Assembly: GCA_022564295.1 (NCBI GenBank)
Contig: JADFLR010000002.1
Coordinates: 124,001-188,000, forward strand
Source of the DNA: Bacteroidota bacterium
GTDB lineage: Bacteria > Bacteroidota > Ignavibacteria > Ignavibacteriales > Ignavibacteriaceae
Direction: 5' to 3'
DNA: 64,000 nt
Part shown: positions 1,475-35,117 of the stretch, in pieces
How the letters are laid out: the number at the start of each line of letters is the position of its first letter
Position numbering within the stretch: position 1 is the first letter of the stretch
Position numbers and translations under genes: made by a program
Notes under the pieces: generated by a model
The model's input: the letters and a program-made list of their open reading frames with translations, nothing else
Database searches by the model: none
Told to the model about the DNA's origin: nothing

Positions 1475-4400
1475 TTATTGAATTACAATATTTACATCCA
1501 GCCCGGCTTCGTTTGTTGTAGTCGGTGGAATTCTTGCTGCACCTTCGGGTTCTACTGTAGATCGTTTAAAGAAAATTGAGAGAGTTACTTTTGAACTTAT
1601 AGTATATCTTATTCGTGGTTCAATCGTGGTTCGTGTGGTGCCGTCCTGCGGAATTCCAACTTCATTAAAATTATTCATTTCATACCTTACAACAGAGTTT
1701 TGTGTTAATGTGTACGCCAGAGTAAACTCAATATCATTTTTCAAAGATAAGCCGAATAATGGAAGTTCGAAACCCGATTTAGAATAACTTGCAGTGAAAC
1801 CAATATCTTTTGAGAACGATTCAGTAATATTTGTAGTGGTTATACCTAAATTGAAACTGCTTCTTGTAGAATACTTAATGTTTCCGGATAAGTTACCGCC
1901 CCACAATTTCCCAAAGGTCATATTTAGACCAACGAGCGGAGTAAAACCATAATCAATTTTTTGTGTTTGTATTTCTTCTTTCCTGTCACTAGTAAGCTTC
2001 CAGCCTTCAGTATAGCTGGAATTGTAAGAATGCTCCAGAGATACTCTTTCGGTAAATGCTTTAAAGATTGGGAATTTTTCCAAACCATCCCAGGTTATTC
2101 GCCAGTTTGCTCGCGGCATATATTTAGCAACTTCTGAAAAAAATGGGGAAGTTCTTGCCCATGCTAATGTTTCAAATCCCTCTATAAATGCATTCGATAA
2201 ACTCTTTCTCGGATCCTCAGCATTAGGATTATACAACTCATTAACTTTTTTAATTCCCGTATTGAAAAATGGCAGAGGCAGACTAAGGAAAGATCTATTT
2301 AAATTCCCTGTTGATGTGATATTAGAAATAAACAAATTGCCTTCAGCATCTCTTGTTAAAGTTGTATTTTTATTCACACCCCAGCCCACTTTCCAGCTCA
2401 CATTAATTTTCGCTCCTTCCCATAAAGGGCGCGAAGTTTTAAAGTCGAAAGTATTTTTATCCGAAAATCTATCACCGATATTTGTGTTGGGCTCATTTGC
2501 TCGTGGACCTACATCCTGGCTTAAACCTACCATGAAAGCTCTTGACGGCCCATTCAAAGGATTGAATGAAATTCCCCAGAAATTTGAAAAACCGGTACCC
2601 GTACTCAACAAACCAGATTTAGACAAGCTGTTACTATTTGTAAAGTTAAATGTGAAATTATCATAATCAAAAAACAATGCTTTAATTGTAAGTTTTAACA
2701 ATGTGAAAGCCCTTGATAAAACTGGTGGTTTTTGGTCGGAACTAACAACCAAAGAATCTAAATTGGCATCCGTACTATCAATTTTATTTCCATCATTATC
2801 ACCGAAATCTTCAAGTCCTTTATTTCGTCCTCTCGTAAGATTATTTGTTTGATTATTATCATTTTTACCTGGAGTTCCAAAGAGTGGTTCAGTAAGAGAT
2901 TTCCATCTCAATATTAAACCTGCACTACTCCTACTCGAAAAACCTGCACTTCTACCAAGGATATCCTGTCTAAGATCATTATCCCATCTATAATTAACTG
3001 AATAACCAGCGGTAATTGTAAAGTACCTGTTTATATTCCAAAGCGAAGGTAATCTTGGATTTAACCTAATATCGAATGATTGTTGATAAAGAAAATCTTT
3101 ACCAAATCCTGCTCCACCAAAAATATCACTCCAAATCTCATCTTCAGTCCGGTCCTGATCATTATTATCAACTAGAAGATAAGCTAATGATGAATTGATA
3201 TTAACATTGTAAGTTGTGCTTATATTAAGTAATCCACCGTCAGTCAGTCTCCACGCAAAGTTAAATCCTCTTGTAGCAGTGAAGTCACGCGAAACAACTT
3301 CGTTTGGCTGAATGTTACCGGTTGCACGTGTTGTCCTGCTATTACGGTTCCGTTTTGCTGTTACATTTACCGAAAAGTTTTGAGGAGTAAAATAAATTTT
3401 CGAATCTCTATAATCTTTGAATAATGCAAACAGCCATCCGATGACCGGGAATTTTGATGGTTGTATATATAAATCGGGGCTGAACGAAATACCGTAATTC
3501 ATGTTCACATTCCATAACCAGTTATTACTTTGCTGAATGGTTGGGCTGCGTCTAAAAGAATTGTTATAACTAACTCCGAACGAAAGTGCGTTAAATGAAT
3601 CTCTGATGTACCAAAGATTAGTTGGAATAACCAGTTTAATATTTGATGCTGAAACTGTGTTGGAAACGTTTAATGTTTGCGTTTCTGAAATAAATTCATC
3701 TGGGGTTTTTTGTTGTATGTTTTCCAAAGTATCGGGCGGAGCAATACCCAATTGTTTGGCAGCTTCATCAACCCTAACATCTGTACCAGGAATGTATAAT
3801 GGTTTACCAATTGATTCAGTATGCGAATAAATTATTTTAAGATTACTCTGTGGCATATTGAACGGCACTAGTTTAAGCACATTTAAATTCGTAGACACTG
3901 TCCAATTCACGTTCTCAGCTCTGGATCCAAACCGATCCGATAGTTTATGGAAATAAGGATTCGTCTCACGTAGATTAGCATTAACAGTCATTAAGTCAGC
4001 AATTTTTAGTGAGGCGGAGATACCGTACGCCCAGCCGGGTGTATCTTCAGCACCAATAACTCTAAGTTCATTAACCCATACTTCACCCGAGAGCGGACCG
4101 GGATTAAAACCATTATCAAGATTAACTATTCCAACGGTTAAAAACTTTACGGATATTAATGTGGGATTTCCTTTCAGTTGATAGAAATGATCGGGTTTCC
4201 CGAGAACAGGTTTTTTAACGACCTGGCTTGATGAATCTCTGGCTAACTGTTTAATTGCTGTTAATTCATCAAATTTAATTGAAATACTATTCCAACCGTT
4301 ACCGACCGGCTGACGATACTCATAATAGTTGTTTGTGTCTGTACCAAACCTAAAGAAAACTTCCGATGAGAACTCTCCGGTTTCAGGGTCGTTATACGCA

Positions 4401-7400
4401 ATGGATGTGGGATTATTATCCTCATCTCCATGTATAAAAAGTTTCATTTCATTGTAGTTAAAAACATCGAGAGGGCGGAATAAATATTTTATGGCTTCAC
4501 GCGATTCACCATCTTCTAAATCGGTTAGTATTAAATTTAATGACTGTTCATTTTTAAAAATTTCTTCATCAGGTCTTGTTCTGTCTCTCTCGCGAAATAC
4601 ACCGGGAGGACTTGTGTAATCAGAGTTTTCTTCCTGACTTACAACTGATATAGAAAGAACTGAATCTTCTGGATCAGGTTTTTGCCATTGGCTTCCTACA
4701 AGGTTAAACTCAGTTATTTGAACATGTATCTCTTCCGATACTCCTGCAAAAAAGAATCTGATTGTTTCAACATTTGATAAACCTGCATTACCAAAATTTA
4801 ACAATGTGTCTTTAAGCGGAATACGATATAAATACCAACCCGCAGGAGTAAATCCGCCACCGGAAATAAACGGATTATTCGCGGCAACAGTATCGAGTTT
4901 GATCTCATATCGGAAATAACTGTTAACAAGATCCACATTTCCATTCCGGTTCAAATCTTCAGTATCCGGTAATCGACCAACGTCAGTAAGAACAGCATTT
5001 CCTTCAGTACCATTTATTTTATAATAATTCATAGGATCAATACTTGAAGTTTGAGAGAGAACAAAATTATCTCCCGAAGGATCAGCCCTGTCGCGTGCAT
5101 CAGGAAAGTTAGCTCGTTCCTGTGCATCAAATAAAGTATCCAATCCTGTATCTTCACCTTCATCAATAGCATCGTTAAAGTTTTTATCTTCAGTGTTTAA
5201 TCTGTTATCGGGTATTACGTCCTCACTAATTAATCCTAGATCCAGGAACAAACTTGCATTTTCAGGAGCATTCTGAATTCGCATCCAGAATTCCACAAAT
5301 TCTATATTCTGTTCAATCAGGTTATTAGCCGTAGATGAGAGAAGTCGCTGTGTACCTCCCCATCGCTTGTCGGGAGAAATGCCATCAGCCGGGTCCCAGT
5401 TAAATGTACCGATTGAATCCGGTAAATAAACAAAATCGAGGACTGTAATTTGCTGATCTGATCTCCCCACCTGTCTATTTCCGCCAAATATTTCATCTAC
5501 AGTAACGATAGCTGGTGTTATGTTGTACCAGAAACTTTTCGCTTTATAGTTCATCATCTGACTTTTGGCTAATCCTTCCAAACCCGGAACGAGATCCGGT
5601 GGACTTAAATCTTTCCATCCCGTATAACCAATACCAATTGGGATCGTTTTCTTTGCTCCTTCAAAGTCATCGATATAAGCAATACTTTTACCTTCATCCG
5701 ATGCTATTGTACTTTTCTTTGTATTCGGATCGGGACTCATATATGCATATTCGCCATTAAAATTAAAAGTTGACATTTCTCTCGTAGAGATGAAAGTATC
5801 CATTAGTTTTGTTAGAAAAGGAAGTTCGCCGGAAGTTTTGAAATCAGCACCTATTATGGTATTACTTAGCGGTTCTTCACCAATTCTCACTTTATCACTA
5901 AGGGTCTGCTGATTAAGATTCATTACTGTAAAGCCCAGTGTAGTCTTATCAGAAAAATCATATATACCACGAGCACCAAGCAACGTTTTTGATGCAAGCT
6001 GGAAAAGATCATTCTGCTCATAAGTGATTCTTAAATCTGCTCCAGGCACCAGAGCCGCATCATTTCGTATCGTAAGCTGCCCGATTGTGTAATCAACCAC
6101 ATAATCAACACCAGCAGTTAATTCTCTTCCATCGAGAAGTACGCGCACAGAATTTTCAACAACATTAAATCCAAGTTGATAGGTAGCTGTAACATCACCG
6201 GTTTGTTTTCCAGTCATCAGCCATTTATCGCTTATCTTATCCTGCCTTGCAAATGTTTTTGTTGTATCATAAATCAATTGATATCTAAAATCTTCTAAAC
6301 CTTCAGGAATGCTGCTACCAAAAGGTTCAAGCCACGGAAAAACTATTTCGCCCGTTTCAGGAAAAATTGTAAAACCGGGTCTCCAGTCAAAAACATCATC
6401 AGGATTAGGGTTTCCACCTTCGCCCTGCTGATCCAACCCAAAAGCATTTAGTAATTTAATATTTCCGCCTTCGGTTTGTAATTCATCTGTTGGTTCCTGT
6501 CCAACCACTTCATACTTTATTCTGAAATCAAAACCTTGTTTTTTAATGTTTCTGCTTCCGGTGGGATAGATATTTTTCAATTTTAATTGCCATGCATCTG
6601 CAAACTGAGGTTGAAGGTTCCTCGGCTTAACTAATTTTAATACAATAAATGTATCTTGCGTTGCAGCGATAAATTCACCATACGTTACATTTGCACTTCC
6701 TTGCTTAAATGAGATTGCAATAACATCCTGATCTTGGATTGAAGTTTTAAAGGAAATAAAACCTGTTTCAGAATGCAGATTATAATCCAACCCCTGAGTT
6801 AATAACTGAAACCGTCCCGTTTCCTCTTTTCCTAATATGGGATTATCAATCGCTTCTCTTAAAGAATCAGGGTATTTACTCTCATTTGCTTGAAGAGGCT
6901 GAAGATCAATATATGCATTAGCAAATCTTTCCTTGGATTTATCGGATGTTATAACATTAATGGATTTCCAAACTTCTATCTCATTTACAAATAAGATGTT
7001 ATTTACCTGTGCGGGAATTTCGAAAAAGTAGTTTGTAAAAAGTGCACTGTCAGCGTAATCTGAATGAATAAAATAATGGTTCTCTGAATAATCATAAGCC
7101 CTTTTTTGGTATTCCTGAGAAGTTGCTCCCCCGGAAACCGAAACTTCTTTTGTCTCACCCTTTTTCTGGCTGGCAATTGCAGTTAGACGGAATGGACCAA
7201 GTTTAAATTTTGTTTTTATTCCAAATAATGCTTCTGCACCACCGATAAGCGGAGCGGTTTGCATCGATACGTTTCCCGCTTCAATGCTCTGGATTATTTC
7301 ATCTTCATAACCTGTATATTTAATCTTAAGCTGATTTTCAAACTGGAAAGTTCTTTCTGTATTCCAGTCAGCTGAGATATTAAGTTTATCACCAATAGTA

Positions 7401-8317
7401 CCATTTACATTTATCTGAACCTGTTGTTTAAAATCAGGTTCATTCCTCGTATTGCCGAGTCTTGATGCAGTAACGCCTTCTGTAGTTTCATTCCTCCATG
7501 CACCATGAATTTGTACGGCACCGCCAATTTTCAAACTAATCTTTGGTTCACCAAAAATACTTAACACTCCAACTTTTGGCAGTGGTATTTCAAAATCGGT
7601 TAAGCTTGTTATTAGTTCGCCTAGGCCCAGTTTTGAGCTTCGAAGATCGTATTTATAGCCGAGTTCTTCCCAGTTTTTACGTTCATTAATTGCGAGTTTT
7701 GCTTCAACATAATCTTCAATAGGTATTTTCAAAAGAATTTTTGTATCCCGCCCCGAAATTTTTTCACGTATTTCAACAATCTTTCCGGTTGAATCAATGT
7801 TTACTGTTCGCTGAACAAACATTACGGAGGGAGTAACAAAAAACTTAGATTGCTTTTTCTCATCAAGCTGAACGTAAGGTACATCTTCCCTTGTATAACG
7901 AAAGTATTCCACACGGTTCGTTGAATCTATTTCTCTCCAATCAACTTTTATAGTATCGGTGGCGAATGTAGAATCAATATTAAGAGTTGAATCGCTGCTG
8001 AATGTTGAATCACTTCCAACTATGGTCGAATCAAGAAAGGAAGATTTTTCTTCGCCGGAATCAGGCGGAAAGATAATATTATCTAGTTGGCTAATGGCAT
8101 GGTCTGAATCATTTTCCGGTTCGGATATGATCAGTTCTGCAGGTTGAGTATTTACTCGATTAATTTCCGGGTTGTTTGCTGCATATAACATATCCAGCCA
8201 CATCGCTCTATTGATCTGGGAATGATACGCAGGGCTGATACCAAGGTTTATTCCCGCATAGAATACAACCATTGCAAACATCGATATGCGGGATAATTCC
8301 CGGATAAGATTTACCAT
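1475..8317 (-). CDS. sprA: SprA/Sov, T9SS outer-membrane translocon
   Basis: This 2280-residue protein begins with a basic, hydrophobic export segment (about residues 1-28) and a Ser/Asp/Thr-rich linker (about 85-125). The rest alternates aromatic residues in the manner of an outer-membrane barrel. Length, single-gene organisation and segments such as IAYIDDFEGAKKTIPIG and the C-terminal strands ending VNIVIQ fit SprA (Flavobacterium) and Sov (Porphyromonas), the very large barrel through which T9SS substrates cross the outer membrane. A short acidic Asp/Asn-rich stretch near residues 1035-1060 resembles a calcium-binding loop. porX lies downstream. There is no internal stop or frameshift. 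The upstream 268 bp contain no gene and probably the promoter. Confidence 0.95.
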   Translation of the reverse strand: MVNLIRELSRISMFAMVVFYAGINLGISPAYHSQINRAMWLDMLYAANNPEINRVNTQPAELIISEPENDSDHAISQLDNIIFPPDSGEEKSSFLDSTIVGSDSTFSSDSTLNIDSTFATDTIKVDWREIDSTNRVEYFRYTREDVPYVQLDEKKQSKFFVTPSVMFVQRTVNIDSTGKIVEIREKISGRDTKILLKIPIEDYVEAKLAINERKNWEELGYKYDLRSSKLGLGELITSLTDFEIPLPKVGVLSIFGEPKISLKIGGAVQIHGAWRNETTEGVTASRLGNTRNEPDFKQQVQINVNGTIGDKLNISADWNTERTFQFENQLKIKYTGYEDEIIQSIEAGNVSMQTAPLIGGAEALFGIKTKFKLGPFRLTAIASQKKGETKEVSVSGGATSQEYQKRAYDYSENHYFIHSDYADSALFTNYFFEIPAQVNNILFVNEIEVWKSINVITSDKSKERFANAYIDLQPLQANESKYPDSLREAIDNPILGKEETGRFQLLTQGLDYNLHSETGFISFKTSIQDQDVIAISFKQGSANVTYGEFIAATQDTFIVLKLVKPRNLQPQFADAWQLKLKNIYPTGSRNIKKQGFDFRIKYEVVGQEPTDELQTEGGNIKLLNAFGLDQQGEGGNPNPDDVFDWRPGFTIFPETGEIVFPWLEPFGSSIPEGLEDFRYQLIYDTTKTFARQDKISDKWLMTGKQTGDVTATYQLGFNVVENSVRVLLDGRELTAGVDYVVDYTIGQLTIRNDAALVPGADLRITYEQNDLFQLASKTLLGARGIYDFSDKTTLGFTVMNLNQQTLSDKVRIGEEPLSNTIIGADFKTSGELPFLTKLMDTFISTREMSTFNFNGEYAYMSPDPNTKKSTIASDEGKSIAYIDDFEGAKKTIPIGIGYTGWKDLSPPDLVPGLEGLAKSQMMNYKAKSFWYNITPAIVTVDEIFGGNRQVGRSDQQITVLDFVYLPDSIGTFNWDPADGISPDKRWGGTQRLLSSTANNLIEQNIEFVEFWMRIQNAPENASLFLDLGLISEDVIPDNRLNTEDKNFNDAIDEGEDTGLDTLFDAQERANFPDARDRADPSGDNFVLSQTSSIDPMNYYKINGTEGNAVLTDVGRLPDTEDLNRNGNVDLVNSYFRYEIKLDTVAANNPFISGGGFTPAGWYLYRIPLKDTLLNFGNAGLSNVETIRFFFAGVSEEIHVQITEFNLVGSQWQKPDPEDSVLSISVVSQEENSDYTSPPGVFRERDRTRPDEEIFKNEQSLNLILTDLEDGESREAIKYLFRPLDVFNYNEMKLFIHGDEDNNPTSIAYNDPETGEFSSEVFFRFGTDTNNYYEYRQPVGNGWNSISIKFDELTAIKQLARDSSSQVVKKPVLGKPDHFYQLKGNPTLISVKFLTVGIVNLDNGFNPGPLSGEVWVNELRVIGAEDTPGWAYGISASLKIADLMTVNANLRETNPYFHKLSDRFGSRAENVNWTVSTNLNVLKLVPFNMPQSNLKIIYSHTESIGKPLYIPGTDVRVDEAAKQLGIAPPDTLENIQQKTPDEFISETQTLNVSNTVSASNIKLVIPTNLWYIRDSFNALSFGVSYNNSFRRSPTIQQSNNWLWNVNMNYGISFSPDLYIQPSKFPVIGWLFALFKDYRDSKIYFTPQNFSVNVTAKRNRNSRTTRATGNIQPNEVVSRDFTATRGFNFAWRLTDGGLLNISTTYNVNINSSLAYLLVDNNDQDRTEDEIWSDIFGGAGFGKDFLYQQSFDIRLNPRLPSLWNINRYFTITAGYSVNYRWDNDLRQDILGRSAGFSSRSSAGLILRWKSLTEPLFGTPGKNDNNQTNNLTRGRNKGLEDFGDNDGNKIDSTDANLDSLVVSSDQKPPVLSRAFTLLKLTIKALFFDYDNFTFNFTNSNSLSKSGLLSTGTGFSNFWGISFNPLNGPSRAFMVGLSQDVGPRANEPNTNIGDRFSDKNTFDFKTSRPLWEGAKINVSWKVGWGVNKNTTLTRDAEGNLFISNITSTGNLNRSFLSLPLPFFNTGIKKVNELYNPNAEDPRKSLSNAFIEGFETLAWARTSPFFSEVAKYMPRANWRITWDGLEKFPIFKAFTERVSLEHSYNSSYTEGWKLTSDRKEEIQTQKIDYGFTPLVGLNMTFGKLWGGNLSGNIKYSTRSSFNLGITTTNITESFSKDIGFTASYSKSGFELPLFGLSLKNDIEFTLAYTLTQNSVVRYEMNNFNEVGIPQDGTTRTTIEPRIRYTISSKVTLSIFFKRSTVEPEGAARIPPTTTNEAGLDVNIVIQ

Positions 8318-25748: not shown

Positions 25749-26225
25749 ATGAAAATTATAATATTCTTATCATTTCTTCCGATATTTATTTTCGCTCAGA
25801 CAAAATCACTTAATCTTGGCGGTAACAATATTGAACTTGGTATGGATGAAGAATCTGTATATGAATTACTCGGACCAAAATTTAGATTAGACGTTGATGA
25901 ATATGACAATTTATTTATATCCGATAATTCTTCGGATCTTACTATTGGCATTATTAATTTTGAAAACGGAAGAGTAAATAAAATTGTAAAGGATTGGGGG
26001 ACCGGGCACAAAAATAATGTTGCTGGTGTATTTAAGACTTTGTGGAATATTTTCAGGCAATTCGGCGAAGAGACTGCATTGTTGAAAGCAATGCCTACAG
26101 AAACATACACACCTACCGGTGAAGAATATAGTTTACAGTTTTATATCAATGAATACAGGTACGTCGATATAAAAATTTTTCACAGCATTTATATTTATGA
26201 AGTTCTCGCAGAACCGGAAATATAG
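25749..26225 (+). CDS. exported protein of unknown function
   Basis: The 158-residue protein has a clear signal peptide (about 1-17, ending FIFAQT) and a small mixed alpha/beta body starting LNLGGNNIELGMDEESVYEL, a pattern reminiscent of short SmpA/OmlA-like or BLIP-like domains in which a GM...V..LLG motif follows a strand. The similarity is too weak to claim. GGAGAAACA precedes the ATG. It is convergent with the PorV/PorQ-like gene at 26249. It appears to be periplasmic or secreted. Confidence 0.75.
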   Translation: MKIIIFLSFLPIFIFAQTKSLNLGGNNIELGMDEESVYELLGPKFRLDVDEYDNLFISDNSSDLTIGIINFENGRVNKIVKDWGTGHKNNVAGVFKTLWNIFRQFGEETALLKAMPTETYTPTGEEYSLQFYINEYRYVDIKIFHSIYIYEVLAEPEI

Positions 26226-26248: not shown

Positions 26249-27145
26249 CTAAAATTTAAATTGTAGCGAAAACAGATTTGCATTACCCAAATCGAATGAG
26301 AAAGGCCTATAAGTATAATCAAATCTTAAACTGCCCCACATCAAACCAATACCTCCTGTAAAACTTTTTGCTTCGTAACCGGATTGATAACCAACACGTA
26401 AAGCAAATATCTCATCATAAATTATATCACCGCCTAAGTTAAAGTGAATATCGTCTGTATCGAGATATTTCTGAAATTCAGCAACGGCAATAAAATCAAG
26501 CTTAGCAGATTCAACACCAAATTTATATGCAGACCCTAATCTAAAATCTGTTGGCAGTTGAGTTTCTTCGTTACGCAGCGCATTCATCGAACCGATATTT
26601 TTGATTACTGTGGATACTGATAATCCTTTAAACGGAGTTTCATAATTTAAACCGAAATCAAAACCCAATCCGTTTGCTTCATCGCTTAACAATCCTTCGT
26701 ACAAATATTTAATTGTTGTGCCGAACGAAAGTTTATCCCACACATAAAATCCTGTGGATAAACTGCCGAAAAAATAATTTGCATCAAATTTTGAATCAGG
26801 TTCGCCGGGTCGGGTTCTTATTTCAATATCGCTGATGCTCGTATAATTTAATCCGATCGCCCAAGGCAATCCGAACATCTTCCATTTAATACCAAACAGT
26901 TCGCTGTTCACATCTTGAATCCAACTGCTGTGCATAATTAAAACTTCATTTTTTTCTATCAATGCTAATCTTGAAGGGTTATAATAAAGTGCGGAAAGAT
27001 CATTGGAAGCTGAAGCGCCTGCATCACCCATTGCAATGTTACGAGCACCATACCCGAATTTTAAAAATGATAATCCTGTGTTGCCGGCAGATTGTGCAAA
27101 AACTAATGTTGAAGTAAAAATAAATAATAAAAGAAATTTCTTCAT
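26249..27145 (-). CDS. PorV/PorQ-family outer-membrane barrel
   Basis: The 298-residue protein has a signal peptide (about 1-17) and the family start GLSFLKFGYGARNIAMGDAG, then SALYYNPSRLA and beta strands ending in LFSLQFKF with a terminal Phe. PorV and PorQ are FadL-like barrels that carry or modify T9SS substrates at the outer membrane; this group also includes many paralogues of unknown role. It is the last gene of the run and lies 8 bp after the sister barrel at 27154-28155. Confidence 0.82.
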   Translation of the reverse strand: MKKFLLLFIFTSTLVFAQSAGNTGLSFLKFGYGARNIAMGDAGASASNDLSALYYNPSRLALIEKNEVLIMHSSWIQDVNSELFGIKWKMFGLPWAIGLNYTSISDIEIRTRPGEPDSKFDANYFFGSLSTGFYVWDKLSFGTTIKYLYEGLLSDEANGLGFDFGLNYETPFKGLSVSTVIKNIGSMNALRNEETQLPTDFRLGSAYKFGVESAKLDFIAVAEFQKYLDTDDIHFNLGGDIIYDEIFALRVGYQSGYEAKSFTGGIGLMWGSLRFDYTYRPFSFDLGNANLFSLQFKF

Positions 27146-27153
27146 TCTATAAA

Positions 27154-28155
27154 CTAAAAATTAAATGTTAAACCAATTATATGTCTGTCAGTACTTGAAT
27201 ATTGTTCGATTATAAAAGCGTAATCAACACCTACTATAAAATTACCAAAGGATTTATAAAAAGAGAATCCAAGCACCGGTTTTATCGGCCAATCAGTGTT
27301 ATTAAGATTAAACTGATCAATACCACCCCTTAAATAAAGCCCTTCGTAAATGTTGTACTCAACTCCGGCGCGTAAGATGTTTGTTTCAGCACTGCTGTTT
27401 TCATATTCAAGTGAAGCAAGTATGCCAACTTTTTTGTTAAGATAACTTACACCAAGTTTTCTAAGGTTAGGGAATTTATCTTCGGTAATAACACCATCTC
27501 TTTCATAAACCGGCGAAGTATCCCACTTATATTTACTGTTAATATCAATAATAGCAATAGCAACCGTAAACTGACCATTAACTTTATACACTGCACCTAT
27601 ATCCACACCAAAGCTAGTTGTGTTAATTTCTTCGAAGAGTTTGTAGTAATAAAATTTTGCCGTAATACCGATAGATAATTTTTGGGAGAAACGGTTTGCA
27701 AATGCAAGATAAAATTGATTTTCAGATGTTGAAAGCTCTCCGGTCGGCAAGCCATTGTTGTCTCTTCCATCAATATTACTAACGCCAGCGTTTATTACAC
27801 CTATACTCACTCCCGCACTATTTCTCGGTTTTGGATTTTCAACCAATGAATCTTTTTTAGAATAAAAATCGAACCGGCGCGTGTAACTTAAAAAATTAAG
27901 ATTACGATCAATCGAAAGAAAAGAATATCCTGTTAGGACGGAATTATTCTCTTGGAAAACGGTAACTGCCGGATTGTAATATGAAACAAGTTCACCTGTA
28001 ATAACTGCCGACATTGCATTGCCCATTCCCATTCCACGTGCGCCAAAACCCATCCTGCTAAATGCACCAGCGCGTGCAGCTATCTCACTAAACTGCGGTT
28101 GTGCAATTATAATTGTACTTGTTAATAATATTATAGCAATGATTATTTTTTTCAA
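27154..28155 (-). CDS. PorV/PorQ-like outer-membrane barrel (second paralogue)
   Basis: The 333-residue protein has a signal peptide (about 1-18) and the same N-terminal hallmark, FSRMGFGARGMGMGNAMSA with SYYNPAV, followed by about a dozen amphipathic strands ending in IIGLTFNF. It is paralogous to the next gene and lies 8 bp downstream of the propeller protein at 28164. The pair may form a secretion-associated complex dedicated to the neighbouring sorted protein; this is inferred. Confidence 0.8.
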   Translation of the reverse strand: MKKIIIAIILLTSTIIIAQPQFSEIAARAGAFSRMGFGARGMGMGNAMSAVITGELVSYYNPAVTVFQENNSVLTGYSFLSIDRNLNFLSYTRRFDFYSKKDSLVENPKPRNSAGVSIGVINAGVSNIDGRDNNGLPTGELSTSENQFYLAFANRFSQKLSIGITAKFYYYKLFEEINTTSFGVDIGAVYKVNGQFTVAIAIIDINSKYKWDTSPVYERDGVITEDKFPNLRKLGVSYLNKKVGILASLEYENSSAETNILRAGVEYNIYEGLYLRGGIDQFNLNNTDWPIKPVLGFSFYKSFGNFIVGVDYAFIIEQYSSTDRHIIGLTFNF

Positions 28156-28163
28156 GATTGCCT

Positions 28164-29714
28164 TTACTGCATCACAATAATTTTTCCAAAAAGAGGAGTG
28201 TCAGAATCAACATCAATCCTGTACAAATAAACCCCATTGGGTACAGTGTTTCCGATATCATCTTTCCCATCCCAAAAATCCGGTGCTCCCTCCAGATCCT
28301 TTTCTCTTGGAGCATTTTGAATGATGGTTCTTACATAATTCATCCCGAAATCGTAAATCCTGATTGTAACTGAAGCATCTTTACCGCCCGTGCTGTACTT
28401 AATTTTTAATTGTTCTTGCCTTGGTGAAAAAGGATTTGGATAGACATAAGTTTCATCGGGTGCTTTTAATGGCTGCGATGCAAAATAAATTTTCCACGTT
28501 CCGTTCCATAAAATTATTTCATCTAGGCGAGCCAATCCATCATTTGTCCCTAACCAAACTGTATTATCCTCGGTATCAGCACTGTAATAAACAGAAGTAT
28601 TTAAAGATACATTTGAAATTTCATCAACAATAGAGTTTGGAAGTATCCAGCTATTACCCTGGTTTGTCGATCTGAAAGCACCGTTATCAGTTGCAGCAAT
28701 TATATCAAAGCTTTTAAACCCAAAGTTGTGGGTTCTTTCGTCACGCAAAAAAGTTATCCACGAAGCGCCGCCGTTATCGGAAGAACTAACTCCATAATAT
28801 TCACTGGGTTCTTCCGCTTTCCATGTGGCTGCCCAAATGGTGTTTGTAACTTCGTTAAATCCGAGTGCAGTAATAAAATTACCGCTAATTGGATCATCCT
28901 GGTTTTGATGATTGAATTTAACCCAGCTAATTCCGTTATCAGTAGATTTATTAATTCCGTCAGCCGTACCAACATAAAGCGTTGTATCATCAGTGGAAAT
29001 AACAGAGAAAACCCGGTGATTTAAATTACCGACGGCACAAAAGCTGCCCGGAACCGGGGAAAGACAAAAATCCAAAGTATCATCAGGACTAATGGAATTA
29101 AGGGCATCCGGTGGAAGAACAACTCTCTGCCAGCTTTCTCCTTTATCGGTACTTTTTCTTAGCCCGCCTGCGAACGAAGTAATCCATACTGTACCTGGTG
29201 TGAATGCAATATCGAATGTCAAGTTTTGTTCTGTAACTGTTACAGGCAACGCTGGAATAATGTTAATTCCGTATTCTACAGTTGTATCTGCAGCAGCATC
29301 TATTGGCTGCGGAACAGACGTCCACGTTATTCCATTATTTGTGGTGTATTTTAACCCGGTACCCGCAGGTACATCACCGGCAATTCCCTCAGCTGTTCGT
29401 GCTGTTGCAGCCCAGAATGTACCGTTGTCATATCCGATTGCTGAAATGTTATCATCGCCAAAAGGATTAGTACCAAAAAAGTTTGTCCAGTTCTCTCCCC
29501 TATCAAACGATACGCTAACTCCTCTGCTCGTTCCAAGCCAAACCGTATCCCCGATTGCAATTATATCAAGTATGCTGTTGCTTAATGGATTGCTGTTATT
29601 AATTTTTGATGTTGATTTTCTTTCCTCTGTAAGATGATAACCATCCGGCGTAATCTGTGCAAGAAGATTGCCTGTAGTAAATAATAATAATGTTGTTAAT
29701 AATTTCAGTTTCAT
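28164..29714 (-). CDS. secreted beta-propeller protein with T9SS-like C-terminal domain
   Basis: The 516-residue protein has a signal peptide (about 1-19) and repeated BNR/Asp-box-like blades: VSFDRGENWTNF, YTTNNGITWTS, KSTDKGESWQR, KSTDNGISWVKF and RSTNQGNSWIL. Its tail (about 425-516) begins YVYPNPFSP and runs through IRIYDFGMNYVRTI, WDGKDDIGN and PNGVYLYRI to LFGKIIVMQ, a FlgD-Ig/type A sorting-domain pattern. It is probably a T9SS substrate displayed on the cell surface. Its gene follows the lipoprotein gene without a gap and precedes two PorV/PorQ-like genes. Ligand or enzymatic role is unknown. Confidence 0.82.
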   Translation of the reverse strand: MKLKLLTTLLLFTTGNLLAQITPDGYHLTEERKSTSKINNSNPLSNSILDIIAIGDTVWLGTSRGVSVSFDRGENWTNFFGTNPFGDDNISAIGYDNGTFWAATARTAEGIAGDVPAGTGLKYTTNNGITWTSVPQPIDAAADTTVEYGINIIPALPVTVTEQNLTFDIAFTPGTVWITSFAGGLRKSTDKGESWQRVVLPPDALNSISPDDTLDFCLSPVPGSFCAVGNLNHRVFSVISTDDTTLYVGTADGINKSTDNGISWVKFNHQNQDDPISGNFITALGFNEVTNTIWAATWKAEEPSEYYGVSSSDNGGASWITFLRDERTHNFGFKSFDIIAATDNGAFRSTNQGNSWILPNSIVDEISNVSLNTSVYYSADTEDNTVWLGTNDGLARLDEIILWNGTWKIYFASQPLKAPDETYVYPNPFSPRQEQLKIKYSTGGKDASVTIRIYDFGMNYVRTIIQNAPREKDLEGAPDFWDGKDDIGNTVPNGVYLYRIDVDSDTPLFGKIIVMQ

Positions 29715-30508
29715 TATTGGATCAGTACAAAATGATCAATAATGTTACTTGATTTTCCACCGCGGTCTTTTGCCTGAAATTCAAAACGATAAGTGCCTTT
29801 ATCATTTGTCTCGTCAATCTGAATTAACCGGGAATAAATTCCGTCACCGGCAAAAAGATCACCGTGATCATCAATATTTCCATCATCAAATAACTCAAGT
29901 TCGTTGTCGTTTGTACTACCGTCTGGTTTATAAACAATAAAGTAAACTTTTATTATATCATTTTGACCGTTTGGATCGCTGGCTTCTACCGAAGTGGAAA
30001 TAACTGTTGGTGCAATTACCACAACCGTATCGGGTTCAATAATTGTGTTTGCAATTATAGGAGGTAGATTATCTTGCCCGTTATTGAATTTAAAACTTGC
30101 CAGGGCAACCTGCTGCAAAGTTTCATCAGCACTCTTTACATAATATTTTATATTATAAACTCCATTAGGGTAAAACTCACTAAGCGGAAACTTATTAGCA
30201 AACCTGTTGTCCCCGCTTGTAACATCGCCGGTTGATGGATCGCCATTATCGAATAATTGAAAAGGTGATGAGTTTAACTTTGATTGGTCCGAAGCAATTA
30301 TATCGCAGAATACATCACTTACTTCGCTTGATGAGGTAAAATTCATCCGGATAGTTATTAATGAATCATCTGCACGAAACTCTATACTATCAGTAGGACT
30401 TACCAAAGAAACTTGATAATTATTTTGGACCGCATCAATAAAGTTATCGAAAGTTTGTTCACATCCGAGAATTATAATGGGGAGTAACAATAGAACTATT
30501 TTTCGCAT
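29714..30508 (-). CDS. lipoprotein with Ig-like repeats
   Basis: I chose ATG 30508 over TTG 30514. A lipoprotein signal peptide ends in the lipobox IILGC, so the mature Cys is at about residue 17. Two Ig/choice-anchor-like repeats follow, each with a DGN..-GD..-GD..Y/F turn: LFDNGDPSTGDVTSGDNRF (about 85-105) and LFDDGNIDDHGDLFAGDGIY (about 205-225). Such pairs occur in surface-layer or cell-wall-interacting lipoproteins of T9SS bacteria. It overlaps the next gene by 1 nt. The role is unknown. Confidence 0.78.
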   Translation of the reverse strand: MRKIVLLLLPIIILGCEQTFDNFIDAVQNNYQVSLVSPTDSIEFRADDSLITIRMNFTSSSEVSDVFCDIIASDQSKLNSSPFQLFDNGDPSTGDVTSGDNRFANKFPLSEFYPNGVYNIKYYVKSADETLQQVALASFKFNNGQDNLPPIIANTIIEPDTVVVIAPTVISTSVEASDPNGQNDIIKVYFIVYKPDGSTNDNELELFDDGNIDDHGDLFAGDGIYSRLIQIDETNDKGTYRFEFQAKDRGGKSSNIIDHFVLIQ

Positions 30509-30569
30509 GAACAAATATTATTTTTAGTCAATCGTCTTAAAAGGTAAAAATTAATATACTGGAATTATA

Positions 30570-31577
30570 TCAAGGCAAAGTTAACATAATTGGTGCAGGA
30601 GAAAAAGAAATAACAAAAATCAATAACGATAGATATCCTAAAAACATTCTTCCTTCACTTAGCGGAACGGGATCCGGGACCGGCGGATGCTTCAATCTTA
30701 TTATAAAATAAAGTATCAACGACCAAAAAAGCCATCCACCCCAGCCAATACCTAAGCCTAATTCTAAAGCACCGTCAACAATTCCAACCAATCCTACAAC
30801 AAATAAAATCAAAAATGCAATTACGGAAACTTTGTAAGAATTTTCCTCTCCAAACATTGTGTAGGCGATATGCCCTCCATCAAGCTGCCCAACGGGAATC
30901 ATATTCATAGAAGTAATGAGTAATCCAAACCAACCCGCACACAGAAATGGATAATGATATATCTCCGTCATCGGCGGAAAATATTTTGAATGATCGGTGA
31001 AGATTGCTTTAAGCGAAGTAAAAAGTATTGAATCACCAAAGACTAATGATAAACCATTTTTTCCAAACTCCGGCTCAAAATAATCGGGATGAATTGATAA
31101 AATGTAATCAATCCCAGGTACGTTTATAAAACCATAAATTAAAATCACAAGGCAAACTGCAAAACCTGATAATGGTCCTGCAATTCCAATATCAAACATT
31201 GCTTTTCGAGAATAAATTCTTTGCCGTGTTCTTATAACCGCACCCATTGTTCCAAAATTTATTAGATAAGAAATTGGAGGGAATGGAATGTAATATGGCA
31301 GAGTTGCACTTATACTGTGGTATCTTGCAGCAAAGTAATGCCCGAATTCATGAAAAGAAATTATTACCATAATTGAAATGGAATAAGGTAAACCCTTCAG
31401 CAAAGTTTCAATTTCGTACGGTCCAAGCCGTCCCGTTGTCCATTCCACACCGGCAATTGTTGTGGTAATAAATGTTACAATAAATAAACCAATGTGAAGA
31501 AGATAATTATCTTTCTTTTTTTCTTTTAATTTTGGTCTGAACGATGATTTGAAAAAATCGATAAAAGATTCGGGCAT
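30570..31577 (-). CDS. M50 site-2 protease family, membrane-embedded
   Basis: The 335-residue polytopic membrane protein has the zinc site H76-E77-x-x-H80 in SFHEFGHYFAARY and the third-ligand motif at D233 in GQLDGGHIAYTMF. About six hydrophobic helices surround them, with the HEFGH and LDGGH motifs inside the membrane. It belongs to the group related to plant EGY proteases rather than RseP, since no PDZ domain is visible. It would cleave a membrane anchor or transcription factor; the substrate is unknown. It lies 3 bp after the barrel gene at 31581. Confidence 0.88.
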   Translation of the reverse strand: MPESFIDFFKSSFRPKLKEKKKDNYLLHIGLFIVTFITTTIAGVEWTTGRLGPYEIETLLKGLPYSISIMVIISFHEFGHYFAARYHSISATLPYYIPFPPISYLINFGTMGAVIRTRQRIYSRKAMFDIGIAGPLSGFAVCLVILIYGFINVPGIDYILSIHPDYFEPEFGKNGLSLVFGDSILFTSLKAIFTDHSKYFPPMTEIYHYPFLCAGWFGLLITSMNMIPVGQLDGGHIAYTMFGEENSYKVSVIAFLILFVVGLVGIVDGALELGLGIGWGGWLFWSLILYFIIRLKHPPVPDPVPLSEGRMFLGYLSLLIFVISFSPAPIMLTLP

Positions 31578-31580
31578 AAA

Positions 31581-32411
31581 TTATAAACCCAGATTAAAAC
31601 CAATGTTTAAATAATTTTCTGTTAAATCGAATAATTCCCCGTGAATGCTTTTGCCGGAAATATAAGATATTAAAATACTGAACCCTCTTGAAAGAGGCGA
31701 ACCGAACTTCACACCTAATTTTGCAATGTTATTTCCGAAGTATGTATCATTAATTCCGTTTAATTTAAAATCGTATGCAACAAATGGAGTGATTGATCCA
31801 TTGCTAAATGGTAAAATGTAGTAATCAAATCCGAACTGGTATATTCCTTTATTAATGATTTCCGGAATGATGTGAAAAATATAGGTGAGTCCTAAATAAA
31901 CTCTAAAACCCGAGATACGATAGTATGGAAAAAATTCAATAAATTCTTTACTAAACGTAAAGGGATCGAGTCCGTTAACCCATTGGCTGCTATGTTCATC
32001 GTACCTTCCGTCAACAAAATGAGCGCTTAGATGACTGAACCGAATGCGCAAACCGCATTCTTTGAGACTATCGTGTTTATTAAAACCGGCATTTATTCCA
32101 AAAAAGAAATCGATAGTTTCAACGGGGAATTTAAAGTTATCGTTGCTTCTCAACCTTGTAAAAGTAAAAAGATCTACACCGAAAGAAATTGTTTCTTCAC
32201 CAGATTTCAATCGCAAAATATCTCTCGATGTTCCGATATCCAACCTTAACCAGTCTTCACCAAGTGCAAACATAAACCCGTTTCGCGGCTCAAGAAGATT
32301 TGAAGTGAATGGCGGAATGTTCAACTCTGCAGGGAACCATTCTTTAGTCTGTTGCGAATAAAGATTAACTGAGAAAACAAGTATTATGGCTATCGATAAG
32401 ATCTTTATCAA
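31581..32411 (-). CDS. DUF1207-like outer-membrane protein
   Basis: The 276-residue protein has a signal peptide (about 1-19), then WFPAELNIPPFTSNLLEPR, which resembles the start of DUF1207 proteins, and amphipathic strands ending LNIGFNLGL. It is predicted to be a small outer-membrane barrel. Its ATG overlaps the end of the radical SAM gene by 4 bp. The family assignment is from memory of the pattern; the function is unknown. Confidence 0.68.
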   Translation of the reverse strand: MIKILSIAIILVFSVNLYSQQTKEWFPAELNIPPFTSNLLEPRNGFMFALGEDWLRLDIGTSRDILRLKSGEETISFGVDLFTFTRLRSNDNFKFPVETIDFFFGINAGFNKHDSLKECGLRIRFSHLSAHFVDGRYDEHSSQWVNGLDPFTFSKEFIEFFPYYRISGFRVYLGLTYIFHIIPEIINKGIYQFGFDYYILPFSNGSITPFVAYDFKLNGINDTYFGNNIAKLGVKFGSPLSRGFSILISYISGKSIHGELFDLTENYLNIGFNLGL

Positions 32412-33403
32412 TAATTTTTTTCCAGCTTAGATATTTTCTTCTGCAATTTCTGTTTTATCAACTTGTTATATCCATATTTGAATTTTGATGTTAAACTTGC
32501 AACCGCATAAAGGTTTGTCGGGAAAGCAAACGATGGTTCAAAATAGCAATTAACTGTGCAGCCCTGGCAAAAATCGAATCGTCCCTCCATCTTTTGATAG
32601 TATTTATACTTTTCAGAATTTCTTATTTCTTTGATTGATTTGTCAATCGGTATTCTCTCATTTCCAAAATGATAACATGGAAGAATTATTTCGTTGTACG
32701 GTGAAATGACAACAACCCTTGATACTGCTTTGCAAGAAGGGTTGTTTATATCGTTTCCTCCATCACGGCGTAATTTCATAAAACCTTTATTTAAATAGAT
32801 GTTCATCTTGCCGTTGCAATATTCATCAACATAATCAACGGCTTTTTCATTCAATCCGGGATTTCCAAAATATGAGAACACCGGATTAACCAAAAGGACC
32901 AAATCATACTTCTGTGCAATTGCGTGCATCTGCGGCAATTTCTTGTATGTGACATTTGTTACTGTAAAAAGAATATCAGGATACTCACCTAAAGATTTTG
33001 CGATTTCAATACTTTTAATAACCGATTTGTAACAATCAACTTTTCTTATCCTGTTATGTTCTTCCTCATCAGGCGAATCTAAAGAGAAATGAAGAAGATC
33101 AATCTTACCGGCTAATTTTTCTGAGAACTTCGGATAGAGAAGCGCGTTTGTTGTAATGCTGGTTTGCATCTTCAGCCCTTTGGCAAACTCTGCCATCAAA
33201 TGGATTTCCTTATGAAGCAGCGGCTCACCTCCTGTAAGATCAATAAACTTTACTCCCTGCTTTACCAATTGATTTACGTTTGATTTAAAATCAGTTAAAG
33301 TTGCATAAGGTGTATCTTTAAACTGAGCGTGGTTACCAAAATGGCAAAACTCGCAGTATGCATTGCAGCGATATGTTACATAATAATTACAAAGGAGAAG
33401 CAT
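32408..33403 (-). CDS. radical SAM protein with SPASM-like C-terminus
   Basis: The 331-residue protein has the [4Fe-4S] triad C13, C17, C20 in YRCNAYCEFC and the SAM-binding GGEPLLH motif. A C-terminal Cys cluster includes PCYHF and FCQGCTVNCYFE, a SPASM-like auxiliary cluster. It is probably an anaerobic-type cofactor or peptide-modifying enzyme. It sits between a glycosyltransferase and an outer-membrane protein, so a role in modifying an envelope product is possible. The substrate is unknown. It starts 1 nt inside the glycosyltransferase stop. Confidence 0.85.
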   Translation of the reverse strand: MLLLCNYYVTYRCNAYCEFCHFGNHAQFKDTPYATLTDFKSNVNQLVKQGVKFIDLTGGEPLLHKEIHLMAEFAKGLKMQTSITTNALLYPKFSEKLAGKIDLLHFSLDSPDEEEHNRIRKVDCYKSVIKSIEIAKSLGEYPDILFTVTNVTYKKLPQMHAIAQKYDLVLLVNPVFSYFGNPGLNEKAVDYVDEYCNGKMNIYLNKGFMKLRRDGGNDINNPSCKAVSRVVVISPYNEIILPCYHFGNERIPIDKSIKEIRNSEKYKYYQKMEGRFDFCQGCTVNCYFEPSFAFPTNLYAVASLTSKFKYGYNKLIKQKLQKKISKLEKNY

Positions 33404-34494
33404 TAATATTCTCTACCCTTCCACTTTACTTTACGACTTGTTAAAACTATAAAAGGAAGTACAAGCACATAAAGAATGTAATAAATCTGATAAACGAAAA
33501 AATATTTTAAGTTTTTTGTAATCCCCATTTTATGGTGAATAGGATAAAGCACGAAGAAATCAATTGCTATTTTAAAGAAAATTAAATATAGCCAGACGGA
33601 AGAATAAAATAAAGGGGTGAGAACGATAGACAAGTTTGCAAGATATCCCCAAAACATGATGAAAAACCCGTGAACAGGAACACCTAACCCTCCAACCGCC
33701 CAGCGTTTTTTTTGACTATAAAGACTTTTTAAATCAGGACATGGAATGGAAGTTACTAATGCATCCTTCTCTAAAGGAAAAAGTATTTTATATTTTTTTA
33801 ATTTATAGATAGCTCTTAACAAGGTAAAATCTTCGGTAACACTGAATGGGAGTGCTTCATAACCACCAATTTCATCGTAAGCTTTTTTTCGGAAGGACAT
33901 GTTATTTCCGATACAGCTAATAGGTATTCCAAGATTAATTGTACCGCCACCCACAAGAAGCAGATACATAAAATCGATTGCTTGCATTCCACCAAAAGAG
34001 TTAGTTGCCAACTGTGTTGTGTAGCTGTCAACCATTCCGACATCATCCTGATAGAATGATGTAATTGTCTTTATCCAAAATGGGTTTACAACACAATCAG
34101 CATCCGTTGTTAAAATAATTTGCCCATTTGCTTCTCTTATTGCTGTAGCTAAAGCATTAACCTTGCCAACCATTTTACCTTTCGGATCATCAGGAATTAT
34201 TTTGCGAAAGTTCTCTCTTTCAGAAATGAATTCATCAACTATCGCTCCCGTTTTATCTGTTGATCTATCATCAACGATCAATACCTCTAACTTACCTTCC
34301 TGATATTCAAGCTTGCCAAGAGAATTAAGACAGCGTTTAATATTATTTTCTTCATCTCTTGCCGCTACAATAACTGTTGCTGTTGGAAGATCCTCATCTC
34401 TTAAACGAGGAAACTTCTTCTTCGCACCGATTACAAAAATTACTGATTGAATAAAATATGCAATTAGAATTATCGTTAATATTAATTCAGGCAT
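33403..34494 (-). CDS. membrane glycosyltransferase family 2
   Basis: The 363-residue protein has an N-terminal membrane helix, GT-A nucleotide motifs VAARDEENN, VDDRSTDKT and TTDADC, and the processive signature QKKRWAVGG. Two to three C-terminal membrane helices follow. Architecture resembles polymerising or sugar-lipid GT2 enzymes (BcsA/HAS-like in the QxxRW motif but much shorter). It overlaps the NodB-like gene by 13 bp, and a deacetylase next to a GT2 suggests a shared polysaccharide product. The sugar is not predictable. Confidence 0.88.
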   Translation of the reverse strand: MPELILTIILIAYFIQSVIFVIGAKKKFPRLRDEDLPTATVIVAARDEENNIKRCLNSLGKLEYQEGKLEVLIVDDRSTDKTGAIVDEFISERENFRKIIPDDPKGKMVGKVNALATAIREANGQIILTTDADCVVNPFWIKTITSFYQDDVGMVDSYTTQLATNSFGGMQAIDFMYLLLVGGGTINLGIPISCIGNNMSFRKKAYDEIGGYEALPFSVTEDFTLLRAIYKLKKYKILFPLEKDALVTSIPCPDLKSLYSQKKRWAVGGLGVPVHGFFIMFWGYLANLSIVLTPLFYSSVWLYLIFFKIAIDFFVLYPIHHKMGITKNLKYFFVYQIYYILYVLVLPFIVLTSRKVKWKGREY

Positions 34495-35117
34495 TCTTCA
34501 GGTACTCCAAATTCAAAACCTTTTGCCGCTGCCGTGTCTGCAATGTATTTAATGGAATCAATTATAAAATCATTTGTTTTATTGCTGTCATGCAAAACAA
34601 TTATCGAATTATTCTGCAAATAATTGTCAACGCTAAATTTAACTCTTTTAATATCATTATTATAATCGTATGTAAGTAAATTCCACATCACACACCTCAA
34701 ATCTGCTTCATTCATTATTTTTTTTGTTTTGAAATTAATCCTTCCGAAAGGTGGTCGAAAATATTTAATATTGCAGCTATAATCGTTTTTCATTAATGAA
34801 TTTAAACTGTTAATTTCTTCCAATGATTCCTTAGAGCTTAAACTTGTTAAAGTCCTGTGATAATAAGTATGATTACCAATAGTGTGTCCTTCATTTAAAA
34901 TTTTATTTACCAATTCTTTGTAACGTTCTAAATTTTCCCCAACACAAAAATGGAGTGCCTTGATTTTTAATTTGTTAAGAGTGTATAATATTTTTTCCGT
35001 TGTTCCAGGATTCGGTCCATCGTCAAATGTAAGAAGAATTTTATTGTTTGATGTTTGCCAATAGAAATGCTTGTATATTTTTTTAATTATTAAAGGTGGA
35101 TTGTATAAATATTTCAT
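34482..35117 (-). CDS. polysaccharide deacetylase (NodB homology)
   Basis: The 211-residue protein has the NodB motifs LLTFDDGPNPGTTEKIL (catalytic base and metal Asp), HTIGNHTYYHRTL (metal His pair), YFRPPFGRIN and IIVLHDSN. No signal peptide is obvious, so it may act cytoplasmically or at the inner face. It removes acetyl groups from GlcNAc-type polymers or from glycolipids. It starts 1 nt inside the RtcB stop and overlaps the following glycosyltransferase by 13 bp. Confidence 0.88.
   Translation of the reverse strand: MKYLYNPPLIIKKIYKHFYWQTSNNKILLTFDDGPNPGTTEKILYTLNKLKIKALHFCVGENLERYKELVNKILNEGHTIGNHTYYHRTLTSLSSKESLEEINSLNSLMKNDYSCNIKYFRPPFGRINFKTKKIMNEADLRCVMWNLLTYDYNNDIKRVKFSVDNYLQNNSIIVLHDSNKTNDFIIDSIKYIADTAAAKGFEFGVPEECLN

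What the first reader, a model, noticed from the sequence alone, without database searches (positions are those of the whole stretch)
26249..30508. Four-gene T9SS-type surface module: lipoprotein, sorted propeller, two PorV/PorQ-like barrels
Seen: gapless genes for a lipoprotein with Ig-like turns, a propeller with a sorting tail and two paralogous barrels. Inference: a dedicated display apparatus in which the barrels receive the propeller at the outer membrane, separate from core PorV. The M50 protease 55 bp upstream could regulate it.
Basis: partly seen in the sequence, partly recalled or inferred. Interest (0 to 1): 0.5.

Follow-up and report, generated by a model that had tools for sequence, protein, structure and literature searches.

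The report
Ancient propeller-and-barrel surface operon

Summary
On the minus strand lie a lipoprotein (LIPO), a propeller with a type-A-like sorting tail (PROP) and two PorV-family barrels (B2, B1), nearly gapless. B1 and B2 are each one clade, apart from PorV and PorQ. The own genome has canonical PorU, PorV, PorQ and PorZ elsewhere, so the module is additional. Foldseek's first PDB match for PROP is PorZ. PROP's tail lacks a motif glycine in 171 of 172 homologues; 23 of 23 other tails in the fetched loci have it. Twenty genomes without PorU keep PROP and Sov; of eight such loci checked, seven keep B2, five B1, none a full LIPO. Best explanation: a PorZ/PorQ-like surface complex, PROP exported through Sov and docked uncleaved on B1/B2. 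Export, docking and function are inferred, not shown. Eight literature searches listed no description. New variant of a known kind.

The parts
29714..30514 (-). LIPO: lipoprotein with two Ig/Fn3-like domains (ATG at 30508)
   Evidence: Cys invariant 30/30; model pLDDT 89.4; tandem Ig/Fn3 matches; 43 of 57 homologues have at least 2 acidic residues at +1..+6 after the Cys
28164..29714 (-). PROP: leader, one propeller (probably seven-bladed), C-terminal type-A-like sorting domain
   Evidence: first Foldseek match PorZ 5m11; seven-bladed propellers Z 24-25
28164..28457 (-). C-terminal domain of PROP (about residues 420-516), with DFGMN where other tails have a motif with glycine in fourth place
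27154..28155 (-). B2: PorV-family outer-membrane barrel, own clade
26249..27145 (-). B1: PorV/PorQ-family outer-membrane barrel, own clade
   Evidence: (PorV 6h3i E 2.1e-6)
30570..31577 (-). M50 site-2-type protease, frequent but not constant neighbour upstream
   Evidence: PF02163 71.9 bits, cut-off 27.2

Best explanation
The four genes encode one outer-membrane complex that works like the PorZ-PorQ part of the type IX attachment machinery but is a separate, parallel set. PROP is exported by Sec, crosses the outer membrane through Sov by its C-terminal domain, and is then taken up and kept by its own PorV-family barrels B1 and/or B2, with the tail not cleaved and used as a docking domain. LIPO is a lipid-anchored, probably surface-exposed partner linked to PorU-dependent work. 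Shown here: gene content, order, conservation, separate ancestry of the barrels, predicted folds of PROP and LIPO, the distinct tail, and retention of PROP with Sov where PorU is lost. Inferred: export route, docking, uncleaved tail, LIPO's place. What the propeller binds is unknown; a surface glycan or LPS, as reported for PorZ, is the leading guess.
For: Complete order in 51 of 58 order loci, 19 of 20 class loci and 20 of 40 phylum loci, with overlapping LIPO and PROP in 45 of 56. Of 59 genomes, 58 have LIPO and PROP. B1 and B2 are single clades with 100/97 and 100/99 support, outside PorV and PorQ. Canonical PorU and PorV (C20), PorQ (C5, 271.5 bits, cut-off 220) and PorZ (C28, 392.7 bits, cut-off 260) lie elsewhere. 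Foldseek's first PDB hit for PROP is PorZ, E 4.2e-15. The tail keeps PNPF, PNGVY and the C-terminal Lys but has the motif glycine in 1 of 172 homologues against 23 of 23 other tails (170 and 22 distinct sequences). Two other PorV-family genes of this genome sit 34 and 43 bp behind genes for proteins with such tails, and a duplicated LIPO-PROP in G040 is flanked by two PorV-family-like barrels (94.4 and 87.5 bits, cut-off 90). The 20 PorU-less, PROP-bearing genomes all keep Sov; one of them (G461) has just three PorV-family matches: PorV, B2 and B1.
Against: No interaction, localisation or expression data. PROP misses the PorZ (18.7 against 260 bits) and TIGR04183 (20.3 against 23) cut-offs. 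The PorZ match is weak in geometry (TM 0.43/0.31, rmsd 17.5) and other propellers follow closely; VIA-align ranks GH74 propellers highest. PROP is absent from about 114 of 269 genomes over the PorU cut-off (by subtraction; only up to 3 and 2 candidates per genome were scored), so it is not a general part of the system. Eight PorU-less genomes keep Sov but lack PROP. Some phylum loci lack B1 or carry B2 upstream, and two extra PROP copies (L090, L251) have no PorV-family barrel among the neighbours tested, so the pairing is not rigid.
Confidence: 0.6

Rival explanations
1. PROP is ordinary T9SS cargo carried by PorV and processed by PorU; the barrels are unrelated transporters that merely share the operon.
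For: Tail is type-A-like; canonical PorV and PorU are present; PROP's tail keeps most general motifs; extra PROP copies without a barrel among the neighbours tested exist.
Against: Conserved order over the phylum; tail lacks the motif glycine in 171 of 172; PROP is kept in 20 genomes that have no PorU over the cut-off.
Confidence: 0.2
2. The module assists outer-membrane or surface-lipoprotein biogenesis, like the Bacteroidota BAM dome, which combines a FadL-like barrel (BamG) with surface lipoproteins, one of them Ig plus propeller (BamI).
For: Similar parts list in PMC12578637 (passages read); LIPO has two or more acidic residues after its Cys in 43 of 57 homologues; deep vertical conservation; M50 neighbour.
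Against: B1 is PorV/PorQ family (161 bits), against 14.7 bits to FadL/Toluene_X (cut-off 29.7); PROP carries a sorting tail; none of the window genes next to the module that were scanned is BamA-like.
Confidence: 0.1
3. A FadL-like uptake or sensing system in which the propeller binds a glycan or lipid at the surface and the barrels take it in, with export of PROP through T9SS only as delivery.
For: PorV is described as a FadL homologue (PMC12578637 passage); GH74-type propeller folds rank high.
Against: No transporter or enzyme gene belongs to the conserved four; no catalytic residues were tested; the propeller's strongly conserved residues may be structural.
Confidence: 0.1

Closest known systems
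PorZ-PorQ of the P. gingivalis attachment complex
   Same: Propeller protein ending in a type-A tail; Foldseek's first match for PROP is PorZ; PorV-family barrel partner; PorZ's tail is reported to be retained and bound to PorQ (PMC10202324, passages)
   Different: One propeller domain in the model and 516 aa, against 748 residues in the PorZ entry; own genome has canonical PorZ and PorQ elsewhere; two dedicated barrels plus a lipoprotein in one operon
PorU-PorV (sortase and shuttle)
   Same: Adjacent genes for a tail-bearing protein and a PorV-family barrel
   Different: PROP matches PorU only in the tail; B1 and B2 are separate clades from PorV
Type B substrate with cognate PorP/SprF shuttle (PMC12618676: abstract, introduction and discussion read)
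   Same: Exported protein followed directly by its presumed barrel partner
   Different: Tail is type-A-like and barrels are PorV-family; that paper's abstract states that type A tails are all recognised by PorV
Bacteroidota BAM with BamG-BamK (PMC12578637, passages)
   Same: FadL-fold barrel, propeller, Ig domain, surface lipoprotein
   Different: BamG is bound to BamA; B1 scores far higher as PorV/PorQ family than as FadL

Membership tests
PorV/PorQ family (NF033709) | B1 over the curated cut-off of 90 bits | tested here: met
   161.2 bits
PorV/PorQ family (NF033709) | B2 over the curated cut-off of 90 bits | tested here: not met
   67.4 bits, E 1.5e-18 over nearly the whole length; the tree places it with a PorV2-like paralogue
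PorV equivalog (NF033710) | Over 250 bits | tested here: not met
   B1 72, B2 31 bits; the genome's PorV scores 268.7
PorQ equivalog (NF033711) | Over 220 bits | tested here: not met
   B1 102.3, B2 37.8; the genome's PorQ scores 271.5
PorZ equivalog (NF052228) | Over 260 bits | tested here: not met
   PROP 18.7 bits, tail only; separate PorZ 392.7 bits
Type A sorting domain (TIGR04183) | Over 23 bits | tested here: not met
   PROP 20.3 bits, E 4.1e-4, nearly the whole model matched: marginal
Type A sorting domain (TIGR04183) | Conserved C-terminal lysine and PNPF / PNGVY stretches | tested here: met
   K511, N427, P428, N493, G494 and Y496 invariant in 30 of 30
Type A sorting domain (TIGR04183) | Glycine in the D..G stretch shared by the other tails seen here | tested here: not met
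   1 of 172 PROPs against 23 of 23 other tails
T9SS substrate | Sov-dependent surface export | not testable with these tools
   Needs a mutant; Sov is present in 40 of 40 genomes checked
Type B / SprF pair | CHU_C (PF13585) tail and PorP_SprF (PF11751) barrel over cut-off | tested here: not met
   PROP 13.9 (27); B1 22.1 (22.3, marginal)
FadL/Toluene_X (PF03349), as BamG | Over gathering score | tested here: not met
   B1 14.7 against 29.7

The most novel reading that the evidence does not exclude
This is a third, sortase-independent docking class of the type IX system: a tail variant without the motif glycine, read by its own pair of PorV-family barrels, which was already assembled before the classes that carry it split and which can outlive the PorU sortase. 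It would contradict the rule that all type A tails go through PorV.
Probability: 0.3. Interest if true: 0.75.

Novelty: new variant of a known kind. Interest (0 to 1): 0.55.

Why it matters
If the reading is right, the type IX system has cognate tail-and-barrel pairs for type-A-like tails as well as type B, and an attachment complex that does not need the PorU sortase. It gives a direct test of the proposal in PMC10202324 that cognate PorV-like barrels protect tails such as PorZ's from cleavage. It also gives a likely place to genes that score only as generic or sub-threshold families and that recur in at least 175 of the 392 genomes of the phylum examined (my count).

Tried and rejected
Rejected: B1 as the genome's PorQ (a better PorQ lies on C5); PROP as the genome's PorZ (on C28); recent duplication of the barrels; loss of the whole T9SS in PorU-less genomes (Sov kept in all 28 examined). 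PROP against PDB sequences gave weak hits: sensor propellers, BNR proteins, the PorU tail, FlgD and a few others. VIA-align's 50 rows do not include PorZ, which is inconclusive. The promoter/terminator scan found no more than shuffles (47 against 43.3; 5 against 7.3). Literature: searches listed no paper that, by title or start of abstract, describes this module; most subscription papers are not held, so absence from print is not shown. The own genome was not screened for all tail-bearing proteins: the glycine comparison rests on 23 tails (22 distinct) that happened to lie in 20 fetched loci, found with a profile made from PROP tails.

Limits and rows dropped. In one search, L049 (second half of G018's split locus) is one of the 58 and counts as without PROP; L034, L048, L058, L062 and L074 are cut by contig ends. 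G001 (L031) has B2 matched over 118 of 333 residues, M50 over part, and no B1 orthologue, unexplained. G026 has no orthologue of any of the four at 87% completeness. The 60 class and phylum loci were chosen by me from the listed matches; 40 of them come from 39 phylum genomes. In one search incomplete genes were left out (56 LIPO-PROP pairs counted). In one search deep barrels and the long paralogues were trimmed to a barrel-sized part first, and some rows have long branches. Searches scored at most about 3 and 2 candidates per genome, so an absence there is not proof; for two PorU-less genomes (G461, G230) I checked 18 kb around PorV and found no PorU, while G251 has it there. The numbers 175 PROP-bearing, 155 of them with PorU, and 20 without are my own counts from the tables (one search counted the 108 phylum-only names on my list).
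Full report
WHAT IS THERE. The window holds four minus-strand genes, in the order of transcription LIPO (29714-30514), PROP (28164-29714), B2 (27154-28155), B1 (26249-27145); LIPO and PROP share one base and the other two gaps are 8 bp. Upstream, on the same strand, follow M50, DUF1207, a radical SAM protein, then a glycosyltransferase-like, a deacetylase-like and an RtcB-like gene (these last three labels are mine from reading, from no family call). The records that match PROP best are mostly MAGs filed under Ignavibacteriales, Ignavibacteriaceae, Ignavibacterium, Melioribacteraceae and the like, so the window is most likely from that order.

WHAT THE PROTEINS ARE. B1 is a PorV/PorQ-family barrel (161 bits, cut-off 90), neither PorV nor PorQ by the equivalog models; B2 matches the same family at 67 bits, under the cut-off. 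PROP's model is confident (pLDDT 89.5, pTM 0.83): one propeller and a C-terminal sandwich. Foldseek's first PDB hit is PorZ of P. gingivalis, E 4.2e-15, though with TM-scores of only 0.43 and 0.31; the VIA second look lists GH74 enzymes first (Z 24.6-26.8, several spanning the tail region) and single seven-bladed propellers at Z 24-25, so seven blades are likely but were not counted directly. LIPO's model shows two Ig/Fn3-like domains. Its lipobox cysteine is invariant in 30 of 30, and 43 of 57 homologues have two or more acidic residues in the first six positions after it, the criterion PMC12578637 uses for surface lipoproteins in Bacteroidota (passages); its use in this order is an extrapolation.

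CONSERVATION. In 59 genomes of the order, LIPO matches in 58 (weakest E 2.3e-15; G040 has two) and PROP in 58 at E 1.7e-92 or better (G028's is split over two contigs). B1 orthologues (E 2.5e-63 or better) stand clear of paralogues (9.6e-30 or weaker) in 57 of 59, with G001 and G026 lacking one. Of 58 loci fetched, 48 show M50>LIPO>PROP>B2>B1 and 3 more the four genes without M50; five others and L049 are pieces cut by contig ends, and G001 is the exception. LIPO and PROP overlap in 45 of 56. The PROP profile then found full-length relatives far outside the order: by my count of the table, 175 of 392 genomes of the phylum at E under 1e-40 (14 same family including the own genome, 28 same order, 25 same class, 108 same phylum only). 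Loci that I chose from class and phylum keep the order: 19 of 20 and 20 of 40 with all four genes; of the other phylum loci, 4 have B2 upstream and 16 lack one or more parts, some at contig ends. In a tree of 80 barrels, B1 (28 rows) and B2 (33) are each one clade (100/97 and 100/99) and PorV (9) a third. The simplest reading is that the operon was put together once, early, from two already different barrels. Some rows have long branches.

SEPARATE FROM THE CORE MACHINERY. The own genome has PorU (C20, 953 bits) next to PorV (268.7 bits), PorQ on C5 (271.5 bits), PorZ on C28 (392.7 bits), and Sov in this same window at 1475-8317. Of its other PorV-family genes, two (on C27 and C10) lie 34 and 43 bp behind genes for proteins of about 1,080 aa with a sorting tail; the remaining ones examined (C11, C8, C56, C42, C43, and PorQ) have no tail gene directly beside them within the stretches scanned. 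In G040 a second LIPO-PROP pair is flanked by two 566-aa proteins that match the PorV family (94.4 and 87.5 bits, cut-off 90); other extra PROP copies (L090, L251) have no PorV-family match among the neighbours tested. Pairing of tail protein and barrel is thus recurrent but not universal.

THE TAIL. Where 23 other tails found in the fetched loci have a glycine (D-V-L-G-N, T-L-S-G-K and the like), PROP has methionine or another residue: glycine in 1 of 172 PROPs, in 23 of 23 others; these are 170 and 22 distinct tail sequences, many closely related. Three deep rows look misaligned there. Tails of six PorZ proteins fetched also show a glycine in that stretch by eye. PMC11285876 (passages) reports one glycine as the only conserved residue of a tail motif, a change to arginine there hindering secretion and one to proline having no significant effect; that it is this position is my assumption. 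[quoted passage not shown] A tail that differs there, next to its own barrels, fits a dedicated reader.

GENOMES WITHOUT PorU. In the same 392 genomes PorU is over its cut-off in 269. Twenty PROP-bearing genomes have none: G230, G245, G266, G274, G295, G313, G331, G334, G337, G384, G390, G414, G417, G425, G430, G435, G441, G455, G461, G472. All twenty keep Sov, as do the eight PorU-less genomes without PROP that I included and twelve others (40 of 40). In 18 kb around PorV, G461 and G230 show no PorU beyond short tail-like matches, whereas G251 of the same family has it. The twenty keep a strong PorV-family match (E 6.6e-97 or better), which in the four of them put in the tree falls with PorV, and have 3 to 7 PorV-family matches, against 8 to 11 in six PorU-bearing genomes of family f39; the eight without PROP have 2 to 4. 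In G461 the three are PorV, B2 and B1. I looked at eight of the twenty loci. In six of family f39 (L236, L237, L238, L240, L241, L242) no lipoprotein gene was found directly upstream; in two of f49 (L233, L239) only a shorter one; five PorU-bearing f39 loci (L232, L252-L255) all have LIPO. One genus (g149) has both states. B2 follows PROP in seven of the eight (L241's contig ends after PROP) and B1 in five; B1 was not detected beside B2 in the f49 loci. So PROP and B2 outlive PorU, while the full LIPO goes with it. Against this: PROP is absent in about 114 of the 269 genomes with PorU (by subtraction), and Sov survives in eight genomes with neither, so PROP is neither needed for, nor the sole reason for, a remaining Sov. 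In G461 a 1081-aa protein beside PorV has a weak tail match (17.4 bits), so other cargo may remain.

HOW IT MOST LIKELY WORKS. Sec exports all four (N-terminal leaders; Q20 of PROP is invariant, in line with the Q rule of PMC5837995, whose passages give Ignavibacterium album a Q-value of 77%). B1 and B2 fold in the outer membrane. PROP passes Sov by its tail and is held by B1/B2 as PorZ is by PorQ. Each step after Sec is inference. The M50 protease is often next door but is not constant, and nothing ties it to regulation.

NOVELTY. Close in kind to PorZ-PorQ and to type B/SprF pairs, but failing the membership tests for each. PMC12618676 (abstract, introduction, discussion) states that type A tails are all recognised by PorV; a dedicated PorV-family pair for a type-A-like tail would be new. 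None of eight literature searches listed a paper on it; that is a limited library, and most hits were seen as listings only.

Noticed in passing
window 1475-8317 (-): Sov/SprA translocon gene of the type IX system lies in the same window, about 18 kb from the module (one search match, ORF). In G207 and G186 the two are hundreds of kb apart or more, so the closeness is not general.
   Followed up: partly
window 30570-35117 (-): M50, DUF1207, radical SAM, glycosyltransferase-like and deacetylase-like genes are also kept in order upstream of the module in many order loci; the radical SAM gene is missing in many of family f2.
   Followed up: partly
G000 C27 and C10 (L289, L290): Two further gene pairs of a roughly 1,080-aa protein with a sorting tail directly in front of a PorV-family barrel.
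   Followed up: no
L236, L237, L238, L240, L241, L242 against L232, L252-L255: Loss of the lipoprotein gene goes with loss of PorU within one family.
   Followed up: partly
L089 (G040 C6): Duplicate LIPO-PROP flanked by two 566-aa PorV-family-like proteins with long extra C-terminal parts.
   Followed up: partly
L031 (G001): B2 matched over only 118 of 333 residues, M50 only in part, and no B1 orthologue in a single-contig assembly of 80% completeness; real decay or misassembly not decided.
   Followed up: no
window 25749-26225 (+): A 158-aa exported-looking protein with no convincing family match, found beside the module only in three relatives (L032, L036, L064).
   Followed up: no
28 genomes without PorU, families f39 and f49: Sov and a PorV-family protein without the PorU sortase: a reduced type IX system.
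   Followed up: partly
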